From: Eretmocerus hayati
Lineage: Eukaryota; Arthropoda; Insecta; Hymenoptera; Aphelinidae
Assembly: GCA_029851415.1 (NCBI GenBank)
Contig: CM056743.1
Location: 32,504,714 to 32,568,713 of the forward strand
Reading direction: 5' to 3'
Length of the DNA stretch: 64,000 nt
The notes beneath the pieces are model-generated. The model was not told where the DNA came from, did not search any database, and saw only the letters and a program-made list of their open reading frames with translations. Position 1 is the stretch's first letter; each line of letters begins with the position of its first letter. Of this stretch, positions 19,905-64,000 are shown one piece after another. A program made the translations under genes and the position numbers.

Positions 19905-21720
19905 AGCCTTTGAACAAATACAGGATGTAAGTGTTTTGTTTGGACCTCTAATCCAGTTCTGATCATTTTGATAATTCTAATCAAAGTTTCAGTTTCAATA
20001 CCCTAGAATACTTGGTGAAAATAACGTATCCGGGTCACTTTGAGAGATGAAGTCAGTTTTGGAAATTTGGAATATTGAATTGGAGTTCAAATCATGTCTG
20101 CTAAGATCCCTGCATTTCAGAGGGATAATTTTATGTTTAGTTATCTGAATCCGTTGGAATTGGCTCGAGTTCCAAAGGTTTTGTGAAAAAAAAGAAAGTT
20201 AATTTGTGGATTCCATTGCACTCAAGATGGATTGAACAAAAACAGAATGTCAGTGTTTTGTTTGGGCCTCTAATCCAGTTCTGATCATTCTAATGATTCT
20301 AATTAAGGTTCAAGTGTCAATATCCTAGAATACTTGGTAAAAATAATGTCTCCGGTTTATTGTAAGAGATAAAGTCAGTCTTAGAATATTGAGTTGAATT
20401 TGAATTCATGTCTGACAAGATCCCTGTATTCTAGAGGGATGATTTCATGTTTAGTTATCTGAATCCGTTGAAACTTGGTTGAGTTATAAAGATTTTGTGA
20501 TCAACATTTAGAAAGTTATATTGCAAATTTTATTGTCCTCAAGATGTATTGATGAAATACAGAGTGAAATTGTTCTGTATGGGCCTCCAAACCATTTCTG
20601 ATCATTCAGGTTCTTCTATTCAAAGTTCCAGTTCCAATATCTTAGGATACTTGGTCAAAACGGCGTATCCGGGTCATTTTCAGAGATAAAGTCAATCTTG
20701 GAATATTGAATTGGAGTTTAAATCATGTCTGCTGAGATCCCTGTATTTCAGAAGGATGATTTCATGTTCGGTTATCTGAATCCGTTGAAACTTGGTTGAG
20801 TTATGAAGATCTCGTGATCAACATTTAGAAAGTTATATTGCAAATTTTATTGTCCTCAAGATGTATTGATGAAATACAGAGTGAAATTGTTCTGTATGGG
20901 CCTCCAAACCATTCCTGGTCATTCAGGTTCTTCAATCCAAAGTTCCAGTTCCAATATCTCAGAATACTTGGTTAAAATGGCGTATCCGGGTCATTTCCAG
21001 AAATAAAGTCTATCTTGGAATATTGAATTGGAGTTTAAATCATGTCTGCTGAGATCCCTGTATTTCAGAGGGATGATTTCATGTTCACTTATCTGAATCC
21101 TTTGAAACTTGGTTCAGTTATAAAGATTTTGTGATCAACATTTAGAAAGTTATGTTGCAAATTTTATTGTCCTCAAGATGTATTGATGGAATACAGAGTG
21201 AAGTTGTTCTGTATGGGCCTCCAAACCATTTCTGATCATTCAGGTTCTTCTATTCAAAGTTCCAGTTCCAATATCTTAGAATACTTGGTTAAAATGGCGT
21301 ATCCGGGTCATTTTCAGGAATAAAGTCAATCTTGGAATATTGAATTGGAGTTTAAATCATGTTTGCTAAGATCCCTGTATTTTAGAGGGATAATTTCATG
21401 TTCAGTTATCTGAATCCGTTGGAAATTACTTAAGTTCTAAAGGTTTCGTGAACAAAATTCAGAAGGTTACTTTATGAATTTTGTTGTACTCAAGATGAAT
21501 TCAACAAATACTGGATGTAACTGTTCTGTTTGGGTCCCTGAATCAGTTCTGGTTATTCTAATGATTTTAGTCAGTGTTCCAGTTTCAATATCCTAGAATA
21601 CTTGGTCAAAATGACGCATACGGGTCATTTTCAGAGATAAAGTCAGTCTTGGAATATTGAATTGGAGTTCAAAGCATGCCCGCTAAGATTCCTGTATTCC
21701 AGAGGGATGATCCCATGTCC
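19905..21720. repeat. 317-bp tandem array, ~5.7 units
   Basis: The marker TGGGCCTC(T/C)A or a variant starts at 19,941, 20,263, 20,580, 20,897, 21,214 and 21,531, spacings of 322 and then 317 four times. Other phrases repeat in phase, including GAATACTTGG, AAATCATGTCTGCT and GATCCCTGTAT. The inner units are most alike and the outer ones more diverged, the pattern expected of unequal exchange. Confidence 0.9.
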
Positions 21721-28264: not shown

Positions 28265-29010
28265 CTGTATTTCATGCTCGTCTGTGCATCCTGGAGTATC
28301 CTGCGGTACACTCAAACTAGTTCCAATAATAATTCGTGATCATGTCATCAACATAAAACCGAAATAATCACAAGATTCGAGACATACATGATAATACTCG
28401 ATCAGACACAAATCCGTCCACTCGAAGCTCACCCGTTGCAACGCCCTAATTCGACGAACGCCTGTGTATCCTAGATTATTCCACGGTCCACTTAAACTAG
28501 TTACAATGATAATCGTGATCATGTGATCATTATCAAACCGAAATAATCACAAGATTCGAGACATACATGGGTCTACTCGATTCGATGCAAATCCGTCTCT
28601 TCGAAACTCACCCGTTGTGACCCTCTTATTTCATGATCGTCTGCGCATCCTGGAGGCTCCTGCGGTCTACTTATACTAGTGACAATGATAATTCGTAATC
28701 ATGCCATCAACATAGAACCGAAATAATCACAAGATTCGAGACATACATGGACCTACTCAATTCGATGCAAATCCGTCTCCTCGAAGCTCACCCGTTGCGA
28801 CCCTCTTATTTCATGCTCGTCTGTGCATCCTGGAGTCTCCTGCGGCCTACTCATACTAGTTACAATGATAATTCGTGATCATGTCATCAACATCAAACCG
28901 AAATAACCATACGATTCGACACATAGACCGTCCTACTCGATTCGATGCACATCCGTCTCTTCGAAGCTTGTGCGTTGCGACCCTCTTATTTCATGATCGT
29001 CTGTGCATTC
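28265..29010. repeat. 180-bp tandem array, about four units
   Basis: The word CGTCTGTGCATCCTGGA or a variant starts at about 28,279, 28,459, 28,638, 28,818 and 28,998, spacings of 179-180. Units also share ACCGAAATAATCACAAGATTC, ACATACATG and CTCACCCGTTG. The last unit is truncated after the marker. Confidence 0.9.
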
Positions 29011-33053: not shown

Positions 33054-33057
33054 TACC

Positions 33058-33207
33058 CACGGTGTTCCGGAAGCTAAAAAAAGTTTGTCCCAAATGACCA
33101 CAAAAACTAGAAACGGGGATGTCTTCGGAACACCAAATAGTGATAAAATTTCATCGAATAAAAATCGGAGCTGATCCTTTTTGCAAGTAATTCGAGAAAT
33201 AAGATGC
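33058..33207 (+). repeat. Terminal inverted repeat, left, of the RAG1-like transposon
   Basis: Begins CACGGTGTTCCGG and matches the reverse complement of 36,402-36,551 with about four mismatches over 150 bp. It includes ACAAAAACT at 33,100-33,108, 35 bp inside the terminal CACGGTG, and an inverted copy of the tip (CGGAACACC at 33,126-33,134), a possible second transposase site. Confidence 0.9.
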
Positions 33208-33425
33208 AGGCTGAGTGGTTTTTCATTTGTCCATTCTGCGGTTATGTTGAGGGAAATTTGGCGACAGGGGCAAAACGAAGGGCCGTTTTCATCACATTTT
33301 CTACACTCCTATTTGAATTGAAGTGCATTTTCGAGTGAAATTATTATGGATTGGATATTTTTACGAGGAATCAAGGTAAGGATGGAGAAGACAGAAATAT
33401 GAGTGATTGAGAATCGAAGTTCGAA

Positions 33426-33431
33426 TTTATT
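33426..33431 (-). terminator. Polyadenylation signal AATAAA
   Basis: Minus-strand AATAAA about 120 bp after the TGA stop of the transposase gene and still inside the element. Confidence 0.5.
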
Positions 33432-33549
33432 ATAAATTCATACTCAGTTTCAACAAATCGAAAATCAAAATACGGTTTTTGGCACAGAGTTTGGGAGCTC
33501 CTCATAATCTCATTGTGAGGAAATTAGAGAAAATATCGAGAAAATGAGA

Positions 33550-35760
33550 TCAGATATGGAGTGAGGAGAATTCCACAACTGCTTCCCTCAATTTTTGTGG
33601 GTATGAATCAAGATTTGGGTTGACTTTTCTTCTCTCCCAGAATCTGAGAAATTCCCGATGAGCAGACTCACCCGCTTGCTCGGACCATAGCCCTAAGCCA
33701 TCGTTTCCGTCCAGTAGTTGCAAGGATTGCGTGAGATGACAGAGAAGCACATGAAGTTTCAAAGTCTTGGAGATTTTCAAAGTATCGAGATCCTTGTGCA
33801 GCTTGACCACTAGTTCATCAATGTATTTGATTGGTTTTTGTCTCTTGAGTGAAAAACACGATGCTACGATTGTATCCATCGTTTTGAATGCAGAAACATA
33901 GGATTTCATTGTTTCCAGACTGGTATCCCCGCGAACTTCTCTGTCGAGAAGTGGATCAGTCTTTTTTAACAAAGTCCGGCACGCATTCCCTTCAAACATC
34001 TCTCCATGATAATTTCGAGAAATCAGATTCAACTTTCTGGGCCATCGAAGAGCTTGCTCCCGTCCAAGAATATGCACTAAACTATTCCAGAATATATGAT
34101 TAACAAATCCTTGAAGAATGTGCAGTTCAGGGATGATACACTTCTCGATAATCAACATCTCATTTTTCTCGTTGAAAAGGGGCTTGTTGATAGTGCTCTT
34201 GCTATTCCTTGCAAATTTTTTATTCCCACCAAGAGCTACAAATTTATCGTGGTCATCTCTCAGATCACCAAACGACTTCAATTTGAATTTCTGCACTTTT
34301 TTGGTTGCTTCACTCGACTCACACCTGAGATCTTTGATACAAATATCGCAGTATGGGCAAGGATACATTGATGTGGCTGTTTGTTGTCCATTGATTATGA
34401 GAAATAACTTGAAATCAGAAACGAATTTGAAGTTGACTTCATTCAATCCTATAAGATCGAAAACCTGCCTCACATTCTCATAAGTCTCCTTTATATCAGG
34501 GACTACGCATAAGATTATCAATTTTTTCACACTAGTCTTGGAGTACTGAGCAAGCAGCTTGTTTGAATCTACGTTTTGCTCCTTGGAAGGGTTACTATAG
34601 TCCGTTCCCGCAGACTTCTTTGCTTCCACAGTCGAGAAACAAACCTTGAAAAATCCTTGTTCTCCGTCCACTACAACTTTGATCGAGTCTTCAAGACAAC
34701 CGCGTTTATTCTTCACGACATCGATGATTTCTCGAGTATTAGCCCATATCACGGGCCTTTTTCCTTTGGCATCAGGATTCTTCGTATCAAAATCTAAGAA
34801 ACTAATTTTATATAAGTGTTGAAGTTCCTTGGTCCTATCACTGACATGACGCGAATAGTGAGCTGGGATTGAATTTCTGCCAATAGATTGATGAACAAGT
34901 GAAGATAATTTCTTCATCTGACGAACTGAAGCACTCGTATTGGTGTGGTAAGCATCCAAATTTTCCATAGGGATTGAAACTTCGTTTTTTTTCTCTTTGA
35001 AAAATATGCGTTTAGGTCTCCCTTTCGATCTCAAGGTACATGAATCCGTACCCTCAGTTTTGGCTTTTTTGCGAATGATTGTCGATGCGACAATCTCTTT
35101 TTGTTCATCTGGTAATTCGTCTAATTCATCCACCATTTGCTTACGTTTATGCGTAGACGCTCGACTTTTACGCGTACTGCAGGGATGTGGCTTACCTTTA
35201 TGAATCTCACTGCCACATTTTGGACACTTTTTTATCCACTTCAACTCACTCTTTCCACTATCACCTCCATCAGGTCGCCGTAGTACTTTTATTTTCGAAT
35301 GACAAGAACCATATAACCCATTGTTAACTGTTATCTCATTGTCCAAGGCTCTTTTTGCACCCGGTGCTTTGTTGACAACGTTATGACTCTTAGATCTGGC
35401 CGTCAAGCATATGTAACAGTTACAAATACACGTATCACCAATAGACGTTTCTGACTTTCTTGTAACCTTTGGCAGTAAAATTTGACTGTATTCGGGAATC
35501 TTCTGCAAGGGTCTTTTTGTGATATTTTTCGAATGTTCTGACAAAGACAAACGACACGTTGTGCAGATACTTGTAGGATATCTGCTGTCACTCAAGTTAT
35601 AACTTGTATCAACGAATTTCTTGATTAGTTCTTCATAGCGCCCATTGATACGGCAAGCTTTCAAATTTTTCCGATCCACAATTATCTTTTTCCCGCACGG
35701 ACCACACACTTTGGCTCTGTTCTCTTCATGATTACACGATTTATTTGGATGCGTCGGCAT
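33550..35760 (-). CDS. RAG1-like DDE transposase (Chapaev type)
   Basis: 736 residues from ATG at 35,760 to TGA at 33,550, no introns. N-terminal zinc-binding clusters: C9, C19-x2-C22, C36, YPTSIC66-x2-C69, then C111/C113/C115/C118, and C179-x2-C182 with H192 and C194. A GRPKR segment (247-251) resembles the AT-hook-like GGRPR of the RAG1 nonamer-binding domain. Catalytic candidates: D365 in VDGEQG, D472 in C468-x2-C471-D, and E698 in WSEQAGES. RAG1 has D600 in CDGMGD, D708 in CTLCD and E962 in WASEGNES; spacing is 107 and 226 here against 108 and 254. A H-x4-H pair before the last motif also matches. The expected role is cutting at the element ends and joining them to target DNA. Alternative: a Transib relative; the 4-bp target duplication argues against that. 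Confidence 0.85.
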   Translation of the reverse strand: MPTHPNKSCNHEENRAKVCGPCGKKIIVDRKNLKACRINGRYEELIKKFVDTSYNLSDSRYPTSICTTCRLSLSEHSKNITKRPLQKIPEYSQILLPKVTRKSETSIGDTCICNCYICLTARSKSHNVVNKAPGAKRALDNEITVNNGLYGSCHSKIKVLRRPDGGDSGKSELKWIKKCPKCGSEIHKGKPHPCSTRKSRASTHKRKQMVDELDELPDEQKEIVASTIIRKKAKTEGTDSCTLRSKGRPKRIFFKEKKNEVSIPMENLDAYHTNTSASVRQMKKLSSLVHQSIGRNSIPAHYSRHVSDRTKELQHLYKISFLDFDTKNPDAKGKRPVIWANTREIIDVVKNKRGCLEDSIKVVVDGEQGFFKVCFSTVEAKKSAGTDYSNPSKEQNVDSNKLLAQYSKTSVKKLIILCVVPDIKETYENVRQVFDLIGLNEVNFKFVSDFKLFLIINGQQTATSMYPCPYCDICIKDLRCESSEATKKVQKFKLKSFGDLRDDHDKFVALGGNKKFARNSKSTINKPLFNEKNEMLIIEKCIIPELHILQGFVNHIFWNSLVHILGREQALRWPRKLNLISRNYHGEMFEGNACRTLLKKTDPLLDREVRGDTSLETMKSYVSAFKTMDTIVASCFSLKRQKPIKYIDELVVKLHKDLDTLKISKTLKLHVLLCHLTQSLQLLDGNDGLGLWSEQAGESAHREFLRFWERRKVNPNLDSYPQKLREAVVEFSSLHI

Positions 35761-36401
35761 ACTATCTTCAAGAATTCAACCTTTAAAAGATATCGGGAGA
35801 CCTCATGCGAAAGAGAAACGGCACATGATTACCATCCATATATTGTTTCTATATATAGAGAGAGAGACCGTTCTTTCCGAACTCGCGGATTTTGAGCGAC
35901 TGATAAGGAGGCCCACCTGACGATTGTTGAGAACGTGAAAAGCTCAACGCAAGTTCTGGTCAACACTAGAGTATTGGCATTGTAAACATGAATACAAGCA
36001 TAGCGCTTAGAGCGCTCGCGAAAGCTCGCGTCACAACATTGAGGATACCGCATCCGCGGCTGCGTGTCTTTCCATCTATTCAGCACGTTCACTAAGAACT
36101 ATGTTATTTGCGAGAATAGTAACGTCCAAATGTCTTGATTCCGCGCCCATTCAGTAGAGAGAGAAAATTTCATGATGATCATACTTTACGTTTTGCGAGG
36201 CATCACTGTACAATTCATCTTGATTAAGATTACAGTCAGTAAAATTTTTTTCATGCTCAAAGGTGCTTGATCAACTTGAGAGATATGAAATAATCGTTTT
36301 TGCGCCTGAAATCATGTGAGAATCATTTCACTTTTAATACTATAGCTAAATCCGGTCCAACGATCGACTGCAAGATACACATTATCAACATCCTAGGGTC
36401 G

Positions 36402-36551
36402 GCATCTTATTTCTCGAATTACTTGCGAAAAGGATGAGCTCCGATTTTGGTTCGATGAAATTTTATCACTATTTGGTGTTCCGAAGACATCCCCGTTTCT
36501 AGTTTTTGTGGTCATTTGGGACAAACTTTTTTTAGCTTCCGGAACACCGTG
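36402..36551 (-). repeat. Terminal inverted repeat, right, of the RAG1-like transposon
   Basis: Mirror of 33,058-33,207, ending CCGGAACACCGTG at 36,551. Differences from the left copy cluster in the inner third. The same ACAAAAACT word is present on the minus strand at the same distance from the end. Confidence 0.9.
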
Positions 36552-36555
36552 TACC

Positions 36556-38782: not shown

Positions 38783-40479
38783 CATGGTGTCCACCGAACC
38801 TGGAGTTCAGGGAAATCAGGGAAAACTCAGGAAATTCGTTATGCACCTGGAAATCAGGGAAAACTCAGGGAATTCTCACGTGGAACCTGGAAATTTTCAC
38901 AAATGTGTCATTTCACTTGCTATTTATTCCCTTTGCAGCGGCCGTCAATTTTTCGATTTGAATGAGAGCAATCCTTCAAATGAGTAATTTCACGTCGATT
39001 CCGCAAAGTTTCCTCCGACCATTTTAATATTCTTCCATGTTCTTTTTCCGTACCATAGTGTCAAAAAAAGATGAATCCTAAAGTGTTTAGGTCCAACAAG
39101 ATTTGTTTGCATTACCCAGGTCTATCTGAGTATATTCGATGTAAAATGACTCGATAAACACGGTGAACTCAAATTATAAGCTCTGCAAGCCTTCAAATGA
39201 GTAATTTCACGTCGATTCCGCAAAGTTTCCTCCGACCATTTTAATATTCTTCCATGTTCTTTTTCCGTACCATAGTGTCAAAAAAAGATGAATCCTAAAG
39301 TGTTTAGGTCCAACAAGATTTGTTTGCATTACCCAGGTCTATCTGAGTATATTCGATGTAAAATGACTCGATAAACACGGTGAACTCAAATTATAAGCTC
39401 TGCAAGCCTTCAAATGAGTAATTTCACGTCGATTCCGCAAAGTTTCCTCCGACCATTTTAATATTCTTCCATGTTCTTTTTCTGTACCATAGTGTCAAAA
39501 AAAGATGAATCCTAAAGTGTTTAGGTCCAACAAGATTTGTTTGCATTACCCAGGTCTATCTAAGTATATTCGATGTAAAATGACTCGATAAACACGGTGA
39601 ACTCAAATTATAAGCTCTGCAAGAAACTCCAGCTTCATAAAATATTATTTTCTACTGTTTTGATTTTTCAATGCACGAAAAATTGTTGGGAAGCCGTAAC
39701 TGAGAAATGATGCCCCAACATTTTTCACGGGTAGATTACAACAATAGCAACCGAAAACATGAGTGAAAAAAATCTTTTCTGAGCATGTTAAAAAAGCTAC
39801 ACCGACACCGTAATTTGAGATTATTTTGAGTCTGGCAATGACGGTTTTGAAAATGTCGGGCAGATGGTAAATTGATAGGTTTTTGAACCCTCTTTGGAAC
39901 TCCGTGAGCAGAATCGCAATGGGTGGAAGCAGTCCAAAGTTATGTGCGAATTTCTGAATAAATCTCTCAATTTTTGACTTTACAGTAGGATCACTCAGAT
40001 AGATCTGGGTAATGCAAAAAAAATTTTTTGGTACTCAAAATTATCAGAACCATTTTTTTTCAACATTATGAAACGGAAAACACACATCGATGGATAGAAA
40101 AAAGGTCAGAGAACCTTGCAGAATTGACGTGGAATTACTCTCGAACAAGTGTGCATCATGATCCGTTTCTGCACCCCTTGGTCGCTGGTATTAGCTATAC
40201 CGATGCTTCTATTGCTTGTGACCACAAAGTTGCTCAGCAACCTTTATCCCTAGCTCGGAGCATTTTCATTGACACGGCGTTGAAATCATCTTTTGGGGTA
40301 GAGAATGCCCAAAGAGAGTTTGTTCACTTCATCAGCTTGATGAGCACAGAAGAGACATTGAAAATGGCTGATTCGTGTCTGATTCATTCCAATTTTGAAC
40401 CTGGAAATTCTACCTCGAGAGCACTGGAAAACCTGGAATACTCAGGGAATTATTCGGAAGAGATTTGGTGGACACCATG
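38783..40479. mobile_element. Nested element with CATGGTGTCCACC ends
   Basis: CATGGTGTCCACC at 38,783-38,795 is exactly inverted at 40,467-40,479. The left end continues with repeated CAGGGAAA(A)(C/T)TCAGG words (about 38,814-38,880), and the right end with AACCTGGAA and CTCAGGGAATT, so the subterminal regions share a motif. Inside are a 217-bp triplication and a 150-codon frame at 40,028-40,480 that I do not recognise and that runs into the terminal repeat. The ends resemble the GGTGTCC-type ends of several DNA transposon families. Confidence 0.65.
38973..39623. repeat. Three near-identical 217-bp tandem repeats
   Basis: CCTTCAAATGAGTAATTTCAC starts each unit at 38,973, 39,190 and 39,407, and the array ends at 39,623, exactly 3 x 217. 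Only two or three substitutions were seen, all in the third unit (for example TCTGTACC for CCGTACC, TCTAAG for TCTGAG). This is a very young expansion. Confidence 0.95.
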
Positions 40480-53889: not shown

Positions 53890-55080
53890 TATGCTTTTTG
53901 TGCGCAAAGTTGTGCGTGAACGGCCATTTACACGCTTGTGTGCCGTGTGCAAATGGCGAATTCCGCGTGCAAATACCAAAACTGTACGCAAATTATTTTT
54001 TTGTTATTCTGTGCGCAAAAATGGCCATTTAGACGCAAGTGTGCGTGTGCAAATAGCGAATTTGCACATTATTCCGACACAACTGTGTGCGAATATTCTT
54101 TCACGCAGTGCGCAAATGAGGCATCAGTGCGCAAATACTCGTTTGCGCACTGCGTAAACGAAGAACAGTGTGCAAATGAGGCATTTGCGCACTGTGCAAA
54201 TTTCGTTTGCGCACTGGACTTGAGTTGTTTTCTGATCACTCTATACCATCATCTATCTATATATCATCATCATACATAGTTGTGAAGAATATCTAACTTC
54301 GATCTTTCGAGCACCAGCGACAGTTTTGAGCAACGTGGTAACATACTATATGGGCGATAGAGATTTTTCTGATACATTTCTCAAAATTTTTTTTCAGTCG
54401 GGGGGCTCCGCCCCCGAACCCCCCGGCGGGGGCTCCGCCCCTGGACCCCCTCCTCTGCCCTCTTGTGACCCCGTCATGCCATGTTCCTCTGAATGCTTGA
54501 GATGCATTGATCATTCGTTGTAGGTGATGTTTCGGTCACTCCTCGCTACTGTCAAAATTTTTCAGAAAGTCGTCATGGATCCCAAGTAGTTCAAATGAAA
54601 ATGGTTCATGATTTGTTTGAGGAGGAAAAAGGACTCGGATAGTTCGTACACACCAATGCGAAAAAGGAACAAAGTCCGTAAACTCTCGAGACGACGCCCA
54701 AGTCTCACAGCATCCCCTAATTTTTTGATGTGTTTTAGGAGGCGGGTTACATTTTTGCTCACAGAAATAACAAAAAATATCGTAAGCAACTCGGGCGCCG
54801 ACATTTGCGCACTCGTCCCCGCAACTCGTGTGCAAACGTTCCATTTGCGCACAGTTTCGTCGTTCACGCAGTGCGCAAATCAGCCATTTGCACACTGCGT
54901 AAACGATGAAACTGTGCGTAAATGAGGCGTTTGCACACTCGTTGCGGTGACGAGTGCGCAAATATCTGTTGGCGCTCTTGTTGCTTAATATACTATTTGC
55001 GCACGCGACAGATCACTCAACCGTGTGCAAATTGGTCATTTGCGGGCGGTGCGGACATAAGTCCGTGCGCAAATATCGTT
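53890..55080. repeat. Island saturated with GTGCGCAAAT / ATTTGCGCAC
   Basis: Two patches (about 53,890-54,215 and 54,800-55,080) carry at least a dozen exact GCGCAAA or TTTGCGC words plus many TGTGCAAA variants, in both orientations and at irregular spacing. Short frames through them read CAN over and over, which is an artefact of the motif. The two patches flank about 600 bp with a GC-rich block. The arrangement resembles two subterminal regions of one element. Confidence 0.7.
54395..54470. repeat. GC-rich GGGGCTCCGCCCC block
   Basis: GGGGGCTCCGCCCC occurs twice in about 60 bp with runs of C and G between, forming nested inverted repeats. The patch is strikingly GC-rich compared with either side. 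Confidence 0.7.
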
Positions 55081-55099
55081 TGTCCCGGAGGTCTTCGAC

Positions 55100-55905
55100 C
55101 CCGAACCTCAGGACGAGTCCGTGGAAGCATCACCAGTTCCGCCACCCCAAGTTCTACCGACCATCAGGCCAATCTCGCCACTGATGTGGCGAGGCGGGCC
55201 GGAGCCCCAGCCCTCGACCTTGAGGGCAACTATGGAGAACTCACCCCAGTTACGACACGACATGGGTAGTCGTCGTCGCCCCTATAAGCCTCGTCGTCAG
55301 CTCACCACTGAGGGTTATCAGGGAGGGCCAGCCCGTACCGGGAAGTCGAGGTCGAGGAACTGGGGCCCGATTATCTCGTTCGTCGCGTCCTGCTGGAGCG
55401 GCCCCGTGGCGTTGAACAGCCGAACTGGCCAGCAGTCGAACGGTGGAACCACGAGCCCGAGCGCCCCGGAAGAAGACCAACCAAAGGAATAGGCCGAGGT
55501 CGGATAAGGAGTTCACCAAGAGACTGCCCGAAAGCAGCCCGTCTCTGGAGCCCCCAACGGTCAGTGGACCGAGAGAGGGCTCGCAGCACCACGAGACCAA
55601 GAAGCGCGGCCACCAGACGCTCCAGGACCATCAAAACCCAGGGGTTGTCTCTCCGGAACCTAATTCCACTGCCCACCGACCCTCGCGTGGACCCACCTCC
55701 ATTTAGCTGCCTCAACTGTTGGCGGGTGGACATTGGGCATGTCTTTGGGCGTTGCCCGCTGCCAGAGCAGCGATATTGTCGGAATTGCGGCCGACGGGGG
55801 ATTCACGTAACTACGTGTCCCCGGTACCATGAGGCATATATGGCCCAGGAGACACGTGATGGTCGAGAACGGATGGCATTGCGCGACAAGCGTGCAGAGC
55901 GTTAG
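55100..55905 (+). pseudogene. Gag-like fragment with paired zinc knuckles
   Basis: GC-rich coding-like DNA, broken into several frames. The last (55,564-55,905) contains LPTDPRVDPPPF followed by CLNCWRVDIGHVFGRC and then YCRNCGRRGIHVTTC, a pair of cysteine-rich knuckles with slightly unusual spacing, then an Arg/Glu-rich tail. This Pro-linker plus two knuckles is typical of insect retrotransposon Gag proteins, which bind the element RNA in virus-like particles. Upstream frames (Pro/Arg/Ser-rich) are shifted relative to it, so the gene is broken. No protease or reverse transcriptase follows. Confidence 0.6.
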
Positions 55906-55919
55906 CGGGATCGCCAACA

Positions 55920-57700
55920 GGGGGCCGATTGAAGTGAATTCCCGAGATGCACGCGCACGCTCGCAGGGATGCGCGGGCACTCAGGTCACGCGCAAAAATT
56001 TTTGTTTTGCGTTCTGGGTATTATCGATTAATCACATTACCACAATATTTGTCGGGTTAACGACAGTAGCGTAAGGATAAATTGAAAGCAATGAATTGTG
56101 AGATTCACACACTACTCGTATGAATTAAAATGTGAGTCAAATGATCAAGATTTGATGATGATAACTATCAAATTTGAAACATGCAAATACATCATTGCTA
56201 TTACTAGCACCAGAGACTCATCCCTGTTACTCATCATCGCTGTTGATGTGCCAATAAATAGGATAATTCGTAGTACAAGAAGAGCATGAAAGGAAAGGAT
56301 GGTAAAGCAACAGAGATGGGAAGAAATGTGATCCAATCTCATTCTAATACAGCATCAAGGGGAAATTTTGGTGCATTGTGATCTTAATCAAATTTTAGTG
56401 GAGAGTTGATCCGAAATGATATTACAAAATCTCCTCACAGCTTCGGAGTTCTCTGATAATTTCTGTGCGATAGTTCTCTCAATGCTCCTCAAACGTTGAG
56501 ATGCATCTCTCGTAGATCTCTGGAGAGAATCTTTAGATGTAGCGATTTGATGTCACTCGCTTTTTCTGAATTTCAAAATCTGCTGAGGCCGATGAGCGTA
56601 TACCACCTGTGATGGATGCAGAGTATCAGCTTGGATTGCAAGAGAAATAGAGGATAATTCGAACTTACTTCGAGTTAAATAATGAAGCGAAGAAAAGGAA
56701 GAATGAGGAGGAAAGCATTCTATGATCAAACAAACTAACTACATACCAAAGTTACGTTTGGTTGCTTTCAGTTGGAGCTCAATCATCTCAGGACTTACAA
56801 ATTGGATTGAGAACTTCGTCTGCGTTGCAACTAAAGGAACAAGGGTCATGATAATATTGTTGTTTTTTAGCTATTGCTTCAAACGAGAATCGGGTACTCT
56901 ACATCTCATCGATACTCGTTCGAGATCTGAATGACAATCCAAATATGTTAATACTTCAATCATTTTCAAATTTACTATCTTTGTCGAATTTCGATCGGAT
57001 GAAAGGGAATCTGACTGGAAGTATGGATTTAGAGTGAGATTCATTTTGCCGAATCGATTGCTCTGTACACAATCGTATTGCACTCCCCAATTTGCAGGTA
57101 TAATTACAATGAGGGTCGACCATTACTTGTCGAGATGGTAATGGCTTTTTTTGAGTTAGTACAAAAGCATATGCTTCGGGTATGTCCCGGATGTACAGGA
57201 AATGAGATTCTTCTCGGTATAGTATACCTAGAAACTCAAGAGGACGAAATATAGGTTGATGAGGCGTTGACACACTGAGCACTCACATTTCTTTTCATCT
57301 CTCAGGAGTTTCTGGTGCTAGTAATAGCAATGATGCATTTGCATGCTTGAAATTTAATTGGTCGAGGAAATTGTCATCATCAGTTTTTGGCCGACTGACT
57401 CACATTGTAATTCATAGGAGTATTGCGTACATCTCATAATTCATTGCTTATTAATATCTTGATGGTGAGCCGATGAATAGCATATCGGATTTGCTACCAA
57501 TAATGGCCACCAGAATCACATGTTTTCGATGTTTTAATTCATGCATACACCATTGTCGTTAACCCGACAATTATTGTGGTTATATGAATAATCAATAATA
57601 TCCAGAACGTGAGAATAAAATTTTTGCGCGTGACCTAAGTGCCCGCGCAATTTCTGCGAGCGCGCGCGCATTTCGGGAATTCACTTCAATCGGCTCCCAG
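55920..57700. repeat. Inverted repeat, arms ~310-410 bp
   Basis: 55,920-56,230 matches the reverse complement of about 57,290-57,700. Landmarks: CCGATTGAAGTGAATTCCC, GTCACGCGCAAAAATTTT, TGTCGGGTTAACGACA, AAGCAATGAATT and CATCATTGCTATTACTAGCACC. Similarity is roughly 80 per cent with gaps. The left arm begins at the end of the gag-like fragment. The spacer (about 56,240-57,280) holds a 108-codon minus-strand frame I do not recognise. Confidence 0.8.
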
Positions 57701-60740: not shown

Positions 60741-61532
60741 TTACACATTGTATAATTGACTTGGTTTGACTTGTCTAGTGGATCTTCTTAGGGGAACATG
60801 AATCTGTTCAATGGATTTATCCTTTGGAAGTGATTCTACGTTACTTTTACTGTTAAGATTTTTAGGTGAATTAGAAATGTTGGGATCCACTGGAGAAGTT
60901 ACATTGACTGTGCTTTGAGTTATATTTGTGTTATCAGAATCAGGCTCTATTACAGAAGTGTGGCTTTTTGGATGGCTTGATTTGGTATTCGAAGGCTCTC
61001 GATTAGCTTCAATTTCATTCAGTTCTAAGTTACAAGATCTAATTTGATCAGTATGTCTTTTCCATACTCTATTATCATCAGTACAAACAGTGTATGTTAC
61101 AGGACTGTATTTATCAATTATTTTTGCTTGTTTCCAATTTCCAGTGGAATAATCTTTTGCCATAACAACTTCATTTTGGTCAAAGCTTATGTTCCTATTG
61201 CCTTCGAAATATTTTTCTTGGTCACTTTGTTTTTTCTCAACTCTATCTTTAACTTGAGCCTTCAATAAATCAAATCTATTCCTAAACTTCCTACCTACTT
61301 GCAATTCTGATGGACTCACTCCAGTAGTACAGTGAGGCGTAGATCTGTAATGAAATAAATATTTGGCCAGCGCTTCTCTACGGTTCTTACATTCTTGTAA
61401 TAGAAGCTTGAATTTTGACTTGAATGTCTTGACTGCATTCTCAGCAAGACCATTTGAAGCTGGGTGATATGGAGCTGTTCTATGATGTGAAATGCCATTA
61501 TTGGACATGAATTTTTGAAAGCGGCTGAGCAA
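60741..61532 (-). pseudogene. Gypsy integrase, C-terminal part
   Basis: 263 codons open from 61,532. The start holds SNNGISHHRTAPYHPASNGLAEN, the end of the integrase catalytic core, with the catalytic Glu in NGLAEN. It is followed by the helical region with KYLFHYRSTPHCTTGVSPSEL and a basic C-terminal tail that ends in ST-rich sequence and LRRSTRQVKPSQLYNV, typical of Gypsy pol ends. It is in a different frame from the integrase segment just upstream, because of a one-base shift in or near the run of A/T at about 61,515-61,522. The element cannot make an intact integrase from this copy. Confidence 0.85.
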
Positions 61533-61759
61533 AAGCTTGGTCCATTATCAGTTATTAATACAAGAGGCAAGCCCCATGATGCAAAATATTCTCTGAATAC
61601 CTCTATTGTACTTTCTGTAGTTATGTCCTCCATTTCTCTAATCTCTATCCACTTAGAATAGGCATCTATTATTATGAGGTACATTTCACCATCAATGGGA
61701 CCACAAAAGTCAGCATGTAATCTGCTGTTAGGTCCCTCGGGCCAACTCCATACATTCAA
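61523..61759 (-). pseudogene. Gypsy integrase, first catalytic segment
   Basis: In frame with the main pol segment but separated from it by a TAA at 61,766-61,768. It carries two catalytic Asp residues: LHADFCGPI and, after AYSKWIE, LITDNGPSFCS. The frame then drifts out of coding soon after, where the next segment takes over in another frame. So integrase is interrupted twice. Confidence 0.85.
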
Positions 61760-61765
61760 TGAAGA

Positions 61766-64000
61766 TTATGGTGGATTGCTTGCATGTGTAAGACATAAGT
61801 TACATGATTTGCAATGATTTTCTATTTGATCATCCAATTTTGACCACCAAATGTATGAGCGAGCAAGTGCTTTCATTTTCACAACTCCCATATGAGCAAT
61901 ATGTAGTTCTTTCAAAAGATCATTTTGTAATGTTACTGGAATTACTAATCTGTGACCCCACATTATACAATCATTTTCAAGTGTCAATTCTCTTTCACGT
62001 CTCTTGAAAGGTAATAATATATCTGGAACTTGTTTGGGCCAACCATTTTTCATGAAATTTTTGACTGAACTTAGAATTGGATCTTTGTCTGTTTCTTGTT
62101 TAACAAGTTCTATTGACAAGGTATTTACATTTTCTGACACATAATTTAGATATGTGTATTTTTCAACAAAATTATTAACATTCTCCATGGGGAATCTAGA
62201 TAAAAAATCTGCACTTGTATTGGTTGAGCCTTTGATATAATTAATTTCATAATCATATCCACTTGAAAGTACACCCCAACGCTGAACTCTATTAGCTGCC
62301 ATTGAGGGGAGACCTTTCTTATCTCCGAAGATATAAATTAGAGGTTTGTGGTCTGTTTTTAAAATGAAATGTCTGCCATAAATGAATTGATGGAAAGTTT
62401 TCACTCCAAAAATTAAACTCAGGGCTTCTTCATCCAATTGAGAGTATGATCTCTCTGCTACTTTGAGTGTTCTTGAAGCAAACGCAATAGGTCGGACACT
62501 TTTATCTGGCATAATATGTGGAATGACTGCTCCAATCCCAAATGGTAAAGCATCACAAGTAATTTTTACTGGCAATTTTGTGTCATAATGTACTAAAACC
62601 TCATGTGAAACTGAAGCCTCTTTAGCATTTTTGAATGCCTTTCCACATTCATTAGTCCATTTCCATATTGAATCCTTCCTCAACAGTTTGTAAAGTGGAC
62701 TCATTATGGAGGCAAAGTTTTTAATAAATTTTGAATAATAATTGATCATTCCCAAAAACATTTGTAATTCTTTAACATTCTTTGGAGCCTCTACTCTTGT
62801 AATTGCATCAATTTTTTTATTGCATGCATGTAAACCTTCTGCATCTATTGTATAACCTGAAAAATCTCCTTTATTCTCTGCAAACTTACACTTCTTTTTC
62901 TTCAAAGTTAGCCCACATTCTTGGAATCTTTTTAAGACTTCCTCGAGAGCGATGTCATGTTTCTCAACTGTTTCACCAAAAACGAATATATCATCAAAAA
63001 ATATGAGGACACCTTCTATGCCTCTCAGAATTGACTCTATTTCACCCTGGAATTCTCCAGGAGCTGATGCTATTCCATCAAATAAGACTGCTACTTTAAA
63101 TAATCCTTTGTGAGTGGAAAGTGTTAGGCACTCCTGCGAATCCTCATCTATTGGAAATTGTTGATATGCGTGGAGCAAATCTAATTTTGTAAACACTTTT
63201 CCCCGTTGAATTGATGCCATCAAGTCTTGGACTCTAGGGATTGGATGTCTATTCATTATCAGCTGGGGGTTCACAGTGACTTTAAAATCCCCACATATTC
63301 TGACTTCTCCATCATCTTTCAAAATTGGCACAACGGGAGTACCCCACTCACTAAATTTTACTGGTATCAATGACTCTATTCCCACTAGTCTATCTATTTC
63401 TCTTTCGATTTTTGGTTTCAGTGCATAAGGCACTGGTCGAGGTTTGAAAAAAACTGGTTTGGCATCGCTTTTCAATTTTAATTTTATCTTTCTCCGGGTA
63501 TATTTCCCTGGCTTGTCACTAAAAACTTGTTCATACTTTTCCATAATTTTTGGATAATTACTACCTTTTTGCTGACTGTTAATTGCATTTATTCTTTCGT
63601 GGGTTGAATCAATTGTCCTTTGAAATTCGTCCAAAATTTTGAAACTCTCTAACCACTCTCTTCCAATAAGAGGTGAACCTTTTCCTGGCATGATGAAAAG
63701 TTCTAATTTTCTCATCTTACCAAGACATTTTGCAGTTACATTTACTTTCCCGACTGGAATCATTCGAGCATCTGTGTAACTCGTGAACTGTCTTCCCGTT
63801 TTTACTATTTTCAAACTACGTAACTCTCTTTTGCTTCGAAGATAGTCGAGAGAAATTGCTGTAATGGGTGATCCAGTATCAACCTCAAAATCTATCAACG
63901 AGTCTTGGACTCTGACTTTCAAATAAACCGGTTCAACCGCGTTCAATGAATTGACTTCTTTCACTCCTTCAACAAAATAAAGATTTTCAAATTCTTCGCT
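61766..64000 (-). pseudogene. Gypsy pol: protease, RT, RNase H, integrase N-terminus
   Basis: Open from the window edge to TAA at 61,766. In order: an aspartic protease (VDTGSPITAIS, later LIGREWL); reverse transcriptase (SEWGTPVVPILK, RICGDFK, FTKLDLLHAYQQ, then FFDDIFVF at the YxDD position); RNase H (ITCDALPFGIGA, LDEEALSLIFG, KTDHKPLIYIFG); and the H-x3-H/C-x2-C zinc domain of integrase (ELHIAHMGVV, HCKSCNLC). The set and order are those of Ty3/Gypsy pol. The motif before the active site reads LFDGIASAPGEF where PFG is usual, a possible damaging change. Upstream gag and the 5' LTR lie beyond the window. The stop at the end of this frame and the frameshift further on show that this copy is defective. 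Confidence 0.9.

What the first reader, a model, noticed from the sequence alone, without database searches (positions are those of the whole stretch)
33054..36555. Intact RAG1-like transposon with full zinc-cluster / GRPKR / DDE layout
Seen: perfect TACC duplication, 150-bp ends with about four mismatches, one intact 736-codon gene. D365, D472 (in C-x2-C-D) and E698 (six residues after a Trp, followed by Ser) match RAG1 D600, D708 and E962 in local context; spacing is 107 and 226 against 108 and 254. N-terminal Cys/His clusters and GRPKR add to the likeness. Known: the RAG1 core is related to Transib transposases, and N-RAG-TP/Chapaev-type elements carry RAG1-like N-terminal regions. A protein with both halves bears on how RAG1 was assembled. 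The intact state suggests recent activity.
Basis: partly seen in the sequence, partly recalled or inferred. Interest (0 to 1): 0.9.

Follow-up and report, generated by a model that had tools for sequence, protein, structure and literature searches.

The report
Intact Chapaev-type, RAG1-related wasp transposon
A parasitoid-wasp genome carries an intact, recently multiplied jumping gene whose enzyme is built like RAG1, the enzyme that assembles our antibody genes; it belongs to an already described kind of transposon (Chapaev), and the catalytic residue first proposed for it has to be corrected.

Summary
The element is real: 3,494 bp, 150-bp inverted ends (146 of 150 identical), TACC duplication, one 736-codon gene. 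The genome is Eretmocerus hayati. It holds at least 13 near-identical full-length copies, 12 with an open frame; those 12 differ by 0.23% on average. Seven paralogous empty sites confirm the 4-bp duplication.

D449 is invariant and aligns with RAG1 D708. GRPKR is poorly conserved. A RAG1-like N-terminus on a related core was published for Chapaev in 2015.

Less expected: the ends of five families with about 36-53% protein identity share a CACGGTG/CACGGGT tip and a block at fixed distance with an ACAAAAAC-like core, outwardly resembling a RAG signal.

The parts
33054..33057 (.). target-site duplication TACC, left copy
36552..36555 (.). target-site duplication TACC, right copy
33058..33207 (+). 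left terminal inverted repeat, 150 nt
   Evidence: 146 of 150 identical to the right end
36402..36551 (-). right terminal inverted repeat, 150 nt
33058..33064 (+). terminal heptamer CACGGTG (left)
   Evidence: CACGGTG or CACGGGT in the eight families or sisters printed
36545..36551 (-). terminal heptamer CACGGTG (right)
33085..33108 (+). conserved subterminal block, end positions 28-51, containing ACAAAAACT 35 bp after the heptamer (left); proposed transposase-binding site
   Evidence: in register in 5 of 7 families; binding is inference
36501..36524 (-). conserved subterminal block (right)
33550..35760 (-). transposase gene, 736 codons, one open frame
   Evidence: relatives align over the whole length
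35407..35706 (-). N-terminal zinc clusters C19/C22/C66/C69/C115/C118 (Chapa / RAG1 N-terminal-like; weakly ZAD-like)
   Evidence: conserved; profile match to Chapaev and RAG1 N-termini; weak ZAD fold match
35179..35226 (-). C179-C182-H192-C194 zinc knuckle, aligned with the C2H2-type finger of Chapaev proteins and RAG1; no RING before it
35008..35022 (-). GRPKR (residues 247-251)
   Evidence: only G247 well conserved (53 of 56)
34666..34668 (-). D365, first catalytic Asp (aligns with RAG1 D600)
   Evidence: 56 of 56
34414..34416 (-). D449, second catalytic Asp (aligns with RAG1 D708)
   Evidence: 56 of 56
34348..34359 (-). C468-x2-C471, C(2)C motif (aligns with RAG1 C727/C730)
34345..34347 (-).
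   Evidence: 1 of 56; Asp in the closest sisters, Asn or Phe in the more distant families
34120..34125 (-). L546-H547, LH motif
   Evidence: 56 of 56 each
33736..33753 (-). H670-x4-H675, H(4)H motif (aligns with RAG1 H937/H942)
   Evidence: 56 of 56 each
33667..33669 (-). E698, catalytic Glu (aligns with RAG1 E962)
   Evidence: 55 of 56, one gap

Best explanation
This is an intact autonomous Chapaev-superfamily cut-and-paste DNA transposon of Eretmocerus hayati, of the 4-bp-duplication type and not Chapaev3. Its single 736-residue protein has a RAG1-N-terminus-like zinc region, a zinc knuckle and a RAG1/Transib-like catalytic core. Most likely a protein dimer binds both 150-bp ends, contacting the CACGGTG tip and the block 28-51 bp in. 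Metal ions held by D365, D449 and E698 drive cleavage at the tip. C468/C471/H670/H675 hold a zinc that shapes the core as in RAG1. The freed element is joined into target DNA across a 4-bp stagger. Shown: ends, 4-bp duplications, empty sites, conserved residues, copy number. Inferred: zinc binding, DNA contacts, dimer, and cleavage through hairpins on the flanking DNA as in Transib and RAG.
Against: Pfam does not recognise the window protein, and DUF1280 is matched by only 4 of 56 aligned proteins, at best E 0.0031, below cut-off. A single RAG1 sequence aligned only with the N-terminal part (E 0.00071, 26% probability), not the core. In the alignment one DUF1280 protein (P0099) has Asn and not Glu under E698; the two others printed have Glu. 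No Transib sequence was in hand, so Chapaev against Transib was not tested by a tree. No transcript or activity data.
Confidence: 0.92

Rival explanations
1. It is a Transib-lineage (RAG1/ProtoRAG-like) transposon and not Chapaev.
For: RAG1, BbRAGL and HzTransib are the only close solved folds; the tip CACGGTG is one base from the RAG heptamer (recalled).
Against: 4-bp duplications in 17 of 18 copies, whereas Transib makes 5 bp (PMC8355894). The sequence profile matches DUF1280/Chapaev, while a single RAG1 sequence matches only in the N-terminus. No Chapaev structure was seen in the lists, so the fold search could not have preferred one.
Confidence: 0.05
2. One reading: a RAG1-like transposase with a D365/D472/E698 catalytic triad and a RAG1-like GRPKR DNA-binding motif.
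For: The letters are present; D472 follows C-x2-C as D731 does in RAG1; the closest sisters L014, L015 and L028 also have Asp there.
Against: Position 472 is Asp in 1 of 56 aligned proteins and Asn or Phe in the more distant families of the same genome (L016-L023, L027), while D449 is kept in every row and aligns with D708. In CMC, Transib and RAG1 proteins the C(2)C motif lies after the second D (PMC12730594). P249 of GRPKR is kept in 7 of 56.
Confidence: 0.02
3. A domesticated host gene that happens to sit between old transposon ends.
For: Intact frame under purifying selection.
Against: 13 near-identical copies at different sites with perfect duplications and intact ends; 15 further rows that look like internally deleted derivatives (L024 and L026 examined with their flanks).
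Confidence: 0.01

Closest known systems
Chapaev DNA transposons (CMC group; Kapitonov and Jurka 2007, as cited in PMC4411706 and PMC4079192, not read itself)
   Same: CAC..GTG ends, 4-bp duplication, C(2)C/LH/H(4)H, DDE core, RAG1-N-terminus-like zinc region
   Different: Pfam's DUF1280 model does not pick up the window protein; no RING domain, unlike two published Chapaev subgroups; two-part conserved ends
Chapaev3 (Merrow, Garfield, Conan; PMC4079192)
   Same: same superfamily and motifs
   Different: Chapaev3 duplicates 3-bp TWA; here 4 bp with varied sequence
RAG1 core and ProtoRAG (BbRAGL)
   Same: fold of the core, D/D/E and the C-C/H-H site in register
   Different: no RAG2-like frame in the element, 4-bp not 5-bp duplication, spacer between the two end motifs 35 bp and not 12/23 (12/23 recalled)
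HzTransib (6pqx and others)
   Different: 5-bp duplication in Transib; canonical Transib has no identifiable domain besides the core (PMC4411706)
N-RAG-TP of Aplysia (as described in PMC8355894, passage read)
   Same: RAG1-N-terminus-like sequence in a transposon
   Different: described there as composed entirely of the N-terminal-like sequence; here the catalytic core is present too

Membership tests
Chapaev superfamily | terminal inverted repeats with 5'-CAC..GTG-3' (PMC4079192) | tested here: met
   CACGGTG..CACCGTG
Chapaev superfamily | 3- to 4-bp target-site duplication | tested here: met
   4 bp in 17 of 18 copies (L026 excepted); 7 of 7 fetched empty sites
Chapaev superfamily | C(2)C, LH and H(4)H motifs with a DDE core | tested here: met
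Chapaev superfamily | homology to known Chapaev transposases (DUF1280, PF06918) | tested here: met
   profile-profile E 7.6e-30; but no direct Pfam match for the window protein and only below-cut-off matches in 4 of 56 aligned proteins
Chapaev superfamily | Chapa (RAG1-N-terminus-like) domain | tested here: met
   profile match to N-termini of 5 of the 9 DUF1280 proteins E 1.1e-4 (57% probability), with RAG1 added 1.5e-5 (80%), reversed control 0.2 (0.3%)
Chapaev superfamily | position within Chapaev on a tree with Transib and EnSpm | not tested
   no Transib or EnSpm sequences were in hand
Chapaev3 | 3-bp TWA duplication | tested here: not met
   4-bp, varied sequence
Transib / ProtoRAG | 5-bp target-site duplication | tested here: not met
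Transib / ProtoRAG | RAG1-type core fold with D/D/E and C-C/H-H site | tested here: met
   (predicted model and alignment)
ProtoRAG | RAG2-like partner gene | tested here: not met
   apart from the transposase no frame in the element exceeds 121 aa (unspliced frames only)
RAG1 | RING finger after the N-terminal region | tested here: not met
   no RING in the Pfam scan of the window protein
RAG1 | GGRPR nonamer-binding motif | tested here: inconclusive
   GRPKR present; only G247 well conserved; aligned with GRP of two DUF1280 proteins but not with RAG1's GGRPR

The most novel reading that the evidence does not exclude
The ends of this Chapaev clade form a two-part recognition signal, heptamer CACGGTG or CACGGGT plus an ACAAAAAC-like core exactly 35 bp further, read by two parts of one RAG1-like protein. 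If so, heptamer-spacer-nonamer logic is older than, or arose in parallel to, the Transib/RAG lineage. In addition the RAG1 N-terminus, the Chapaev N-terminus and the insect ZAD domain would be one zinc-module family.
Probability: 0.2. Interest if true: 0.75.

Novelty: new member of a known kind. Interest (0 to 1): 0.42.

Why it matters
Chapaev is one of the transposon groups in which a RAG1-type N-terminus sits on a RAG1-type core. PDB searches with the window protein and with the profile of its relatives found no related sequence, and the one literature search for Chapaev with a transposition assay returned two papers whose titles concern other transposons (listing seen). Twelve open, nearly identical copies, confirmed empty sites and a confident RAG1-core-like model make this a good candidate for asking whether Chapaev cuts through hairpins, what the N-terminal zinc region does in a transposon, and whether two-part end signals predate V(D)J recombination.

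Tried and rejected
D472 as catalytic: rejected. GRPKR as a conserved RAG1 mark: weak. RSS nonamer likeness of one end taken alone: an 8-of-9 match to ACAAAAACC occurs in 217 of 1000 shuffles of the first 60 bases and 108 of 1000 of the 150, so alone it is not significant; what stands out is conservation at fixed position across families. That result has limits: the families are related, so they are not independent; the closest sister L014 was left out of the count as too similar; L067 lacks the block (5-8 of 28 on the diagonal against the other six) and L070 keeps it only partly (8-13 of 28; against the five block-bearing families the zero shift is the best shift in 2 of 5 pairs). Degraded rows: L027 has Ser at 468 and Lys at 698, L024 has Asn at 365, L014 and L015 each lack one Cys of the zinc knuckle and L028 lacks C115.

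Divergent families: of 13 loci (L016-L023, L027, L067-L070) 9 show ends with a 4-bp duplication. No ends were found for L021 and L069, only one end for L017 in the stretch fetched, and L020 shows only a 3-bp match, TTC. The first pick of ends required an equal 4-bp flank; one search allowed 3-5 bp and only 4 came out. L022/L023 and L067/L068 also gave inner candidates, which were set aside because both copies share the same flank there.

Full report
What was checked. The window lies at C3:32504714-32568713 of a 692,130,109-base, 17-contig genome. Total, contig number and the four chromosome lengths equal those printed for the Eretmocerus hayati assembly (PMC10482854, passages read; lengths), and protein P0061, named 'hypothetical protein QAD02_019682 [Eretmocerus hayati]' (name cut by the tool), lies on a contig of the same length as C1. 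E. hayati is a chalcidoid wasp.

The element. Ends at 33058-33207 and 36402-36551 are 150 nt, 146 identical; TACC flanks both; the gene is 33550-35760 on the minus strand, 736 codons. In the same genome there are 13 full-length copies at 99-100% protein identity, one with a stop. Over the 12 open copies (L012, with the stop, left out) the mean pairwise DNA difference is 0.23%, the largest 0.49% (66 pairs). Eighteen copies had both ends examined: the 13, three sisters (L014, L015, L028) and two deletion derivatives (L024, L026). Seventeen have perfect 4-bp duplications, 16 different words; L026 does not. The window copy sits inside another repeat: 7 of 7 copies of that repeat fetched besides the window (L030-L036) read across the junction with a single TACC, 95-99% identical. 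Fifteen rows start at residue 297 (13 end at 621, 2 at 736) and look like internally deleted derivatives; L024 and L026 were examined with flanks and are about 2.27 kb with both ends, L025 was fetched without flanks. Counts in this genome are lower bounds by the tool's own statement.

The protein. It matches no Pfam family meaningfully (best E 2) and no solved chain by sequence. The first search gave 65 relatives, mostly unnamed; named hosts are beetles (Brassicogethes, Psylliodes, and a partial match in Carabus) and wasps (Leptopilina, Eretmocerus), and the profile search adds a fungus gnat (Pseudolycoriella) and, at E 5.7e-12, an Amphiura protein with the DUF1280 domain. DUF1280 corresponds to putative Chapaev transposases (PMC3985635, passages read). 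The profile A1 (window protein and 55 of those 65 relatives) against nine DUF1280 proteins (A2, all) gives 99.8% probability, E 7.6e-30, with the D, D, C-C, LH, YHG..GN, H-H and SEQ.GE segments aligned. A2 in turn matches RAG1 at E 6.8e-21 from RAG1 residue 101 to 816 of 1010 and finds RAG1 first among PDB sequences, at E 3e-26 over the N-terminal, RING and C2H2 region, with the solved RAG1 N-terminus 21wb at 8.6e-12; the rows shown (60 of 176) that are not RAG1 are RING-type or ubiquitin-ligase proteins, matched for the most part through the RING region. Two A2 members, P0104 and P0105, carry PF12560 (RAG1 N-terminal) together with DUF1280.

The ends. Tips of the families read CACGGTG or CACGGGT, then differ, then agree again at positions about 28-51 in five families, with ACAAAAACT at 43-51 in the window element and similar letters at the same place in the others. 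Protein identity among L001, L016, L019 and L022 is 40-53%; L027 is 36-45% to the window protein by segments. Across seven families 15 columns of positions 8-60 agree in at least 6 of 7, against a mean of 0.49 and a maximum of 6 in 2000 randomly shifted controls. Five families agree pairwise at 16-21 of 28 bases on the zero-shift diagonal; L070 at 10-13 against those five, L067 at 5-7. Synonymous divergence could not be estimated (saturated) for 20 of 21 pairs of coding regions, so conserved DNA here points to function, most simply transposase binding. The distance from heptamer to the A-rich core is 35 bp; the likeness to the RAG signal (CACAGTG, ACAAAAACC, spacers 12 and 23, recalled) is suggestive only, and the nonamer likeness of a single end is not significant.

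How it works. Supported by sequence: DDE cut-and-paste, 4-bp staggered insertion, ends and protein kept intact by recent transposition, purifying selection (dN/dS about 0.14 against the 69% sister). Inferred from RAG1 and Transib: dimer on paired ends, zinc-organised core, hairpins on the flanking DNA.

Against the literature. The 2015 paper PMC4411706 (Kapitonov and Koonin, authors recalled; passages read) places Chapaev and Chapaev3 in one Transib superfamily with Transib and TransibSU/RAG1, names the RAG1-like N-terminal Chapa domain and reports RING fingers in two Chapaev subgroups. PMC4079192 (2014; passages read) gives the hallmarks used for membership. The E. hayati genome-evolution paper PMC13116730 (passages read) has the word Chapaev 0 times in its main text. 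Verdict: a well preserved new family of a known kind; main corrections are the second catalytic residue and the family name; the two-part ends are the part worth following.

Noticed in passing
L016, L019, L022, L027 and window 33085-33108 / 36501-36524: Conserved subterminal block at fixed distance from a CACGGTG/CACGGGT tip across Chapaev families with about 36-53% protein identity, outwardly like a heptamer-spacer-nonamer signal with a 35-bp spacer.
   Followed up: partly
window 35407-35706: N-terminal zinc region weakly resembles the insect ZAD domain; the RAG1 N-terminal piece also touches Pfam zf-AD at E 0.0033.
   Followed up: partly
window 60741-64000, minus strand: Part of a Gypsy-type retroelement: reverse transcriptase, RNase H, integrase zinc-binding and integrase core matches.
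   Followed up: partly
window 19916-21718, 28268-29008, 38968-39623: Tandem arrays with units of 317, 180 and 217 bp; the last is 99% uniform.
   Followed up: no
window 54001-56000: GC 0.535 against 0.343-0.444 in the other 2-kb blocks of the window.
   Followed up: no
G000 C3:82690578-82691435 and four other places: Weak matches (E 3.2e-7 to 3.2e-4) to an echinoderm RING-Chapaev protein, so other Chapaev-like lineages may be present in the wasp.
   Followed up: no
L067, L068: A related family (686-aa open frame) with CACGGGT tips and 4-bp duplications but, in L067, without the conserved end block.
   Followed up: partly
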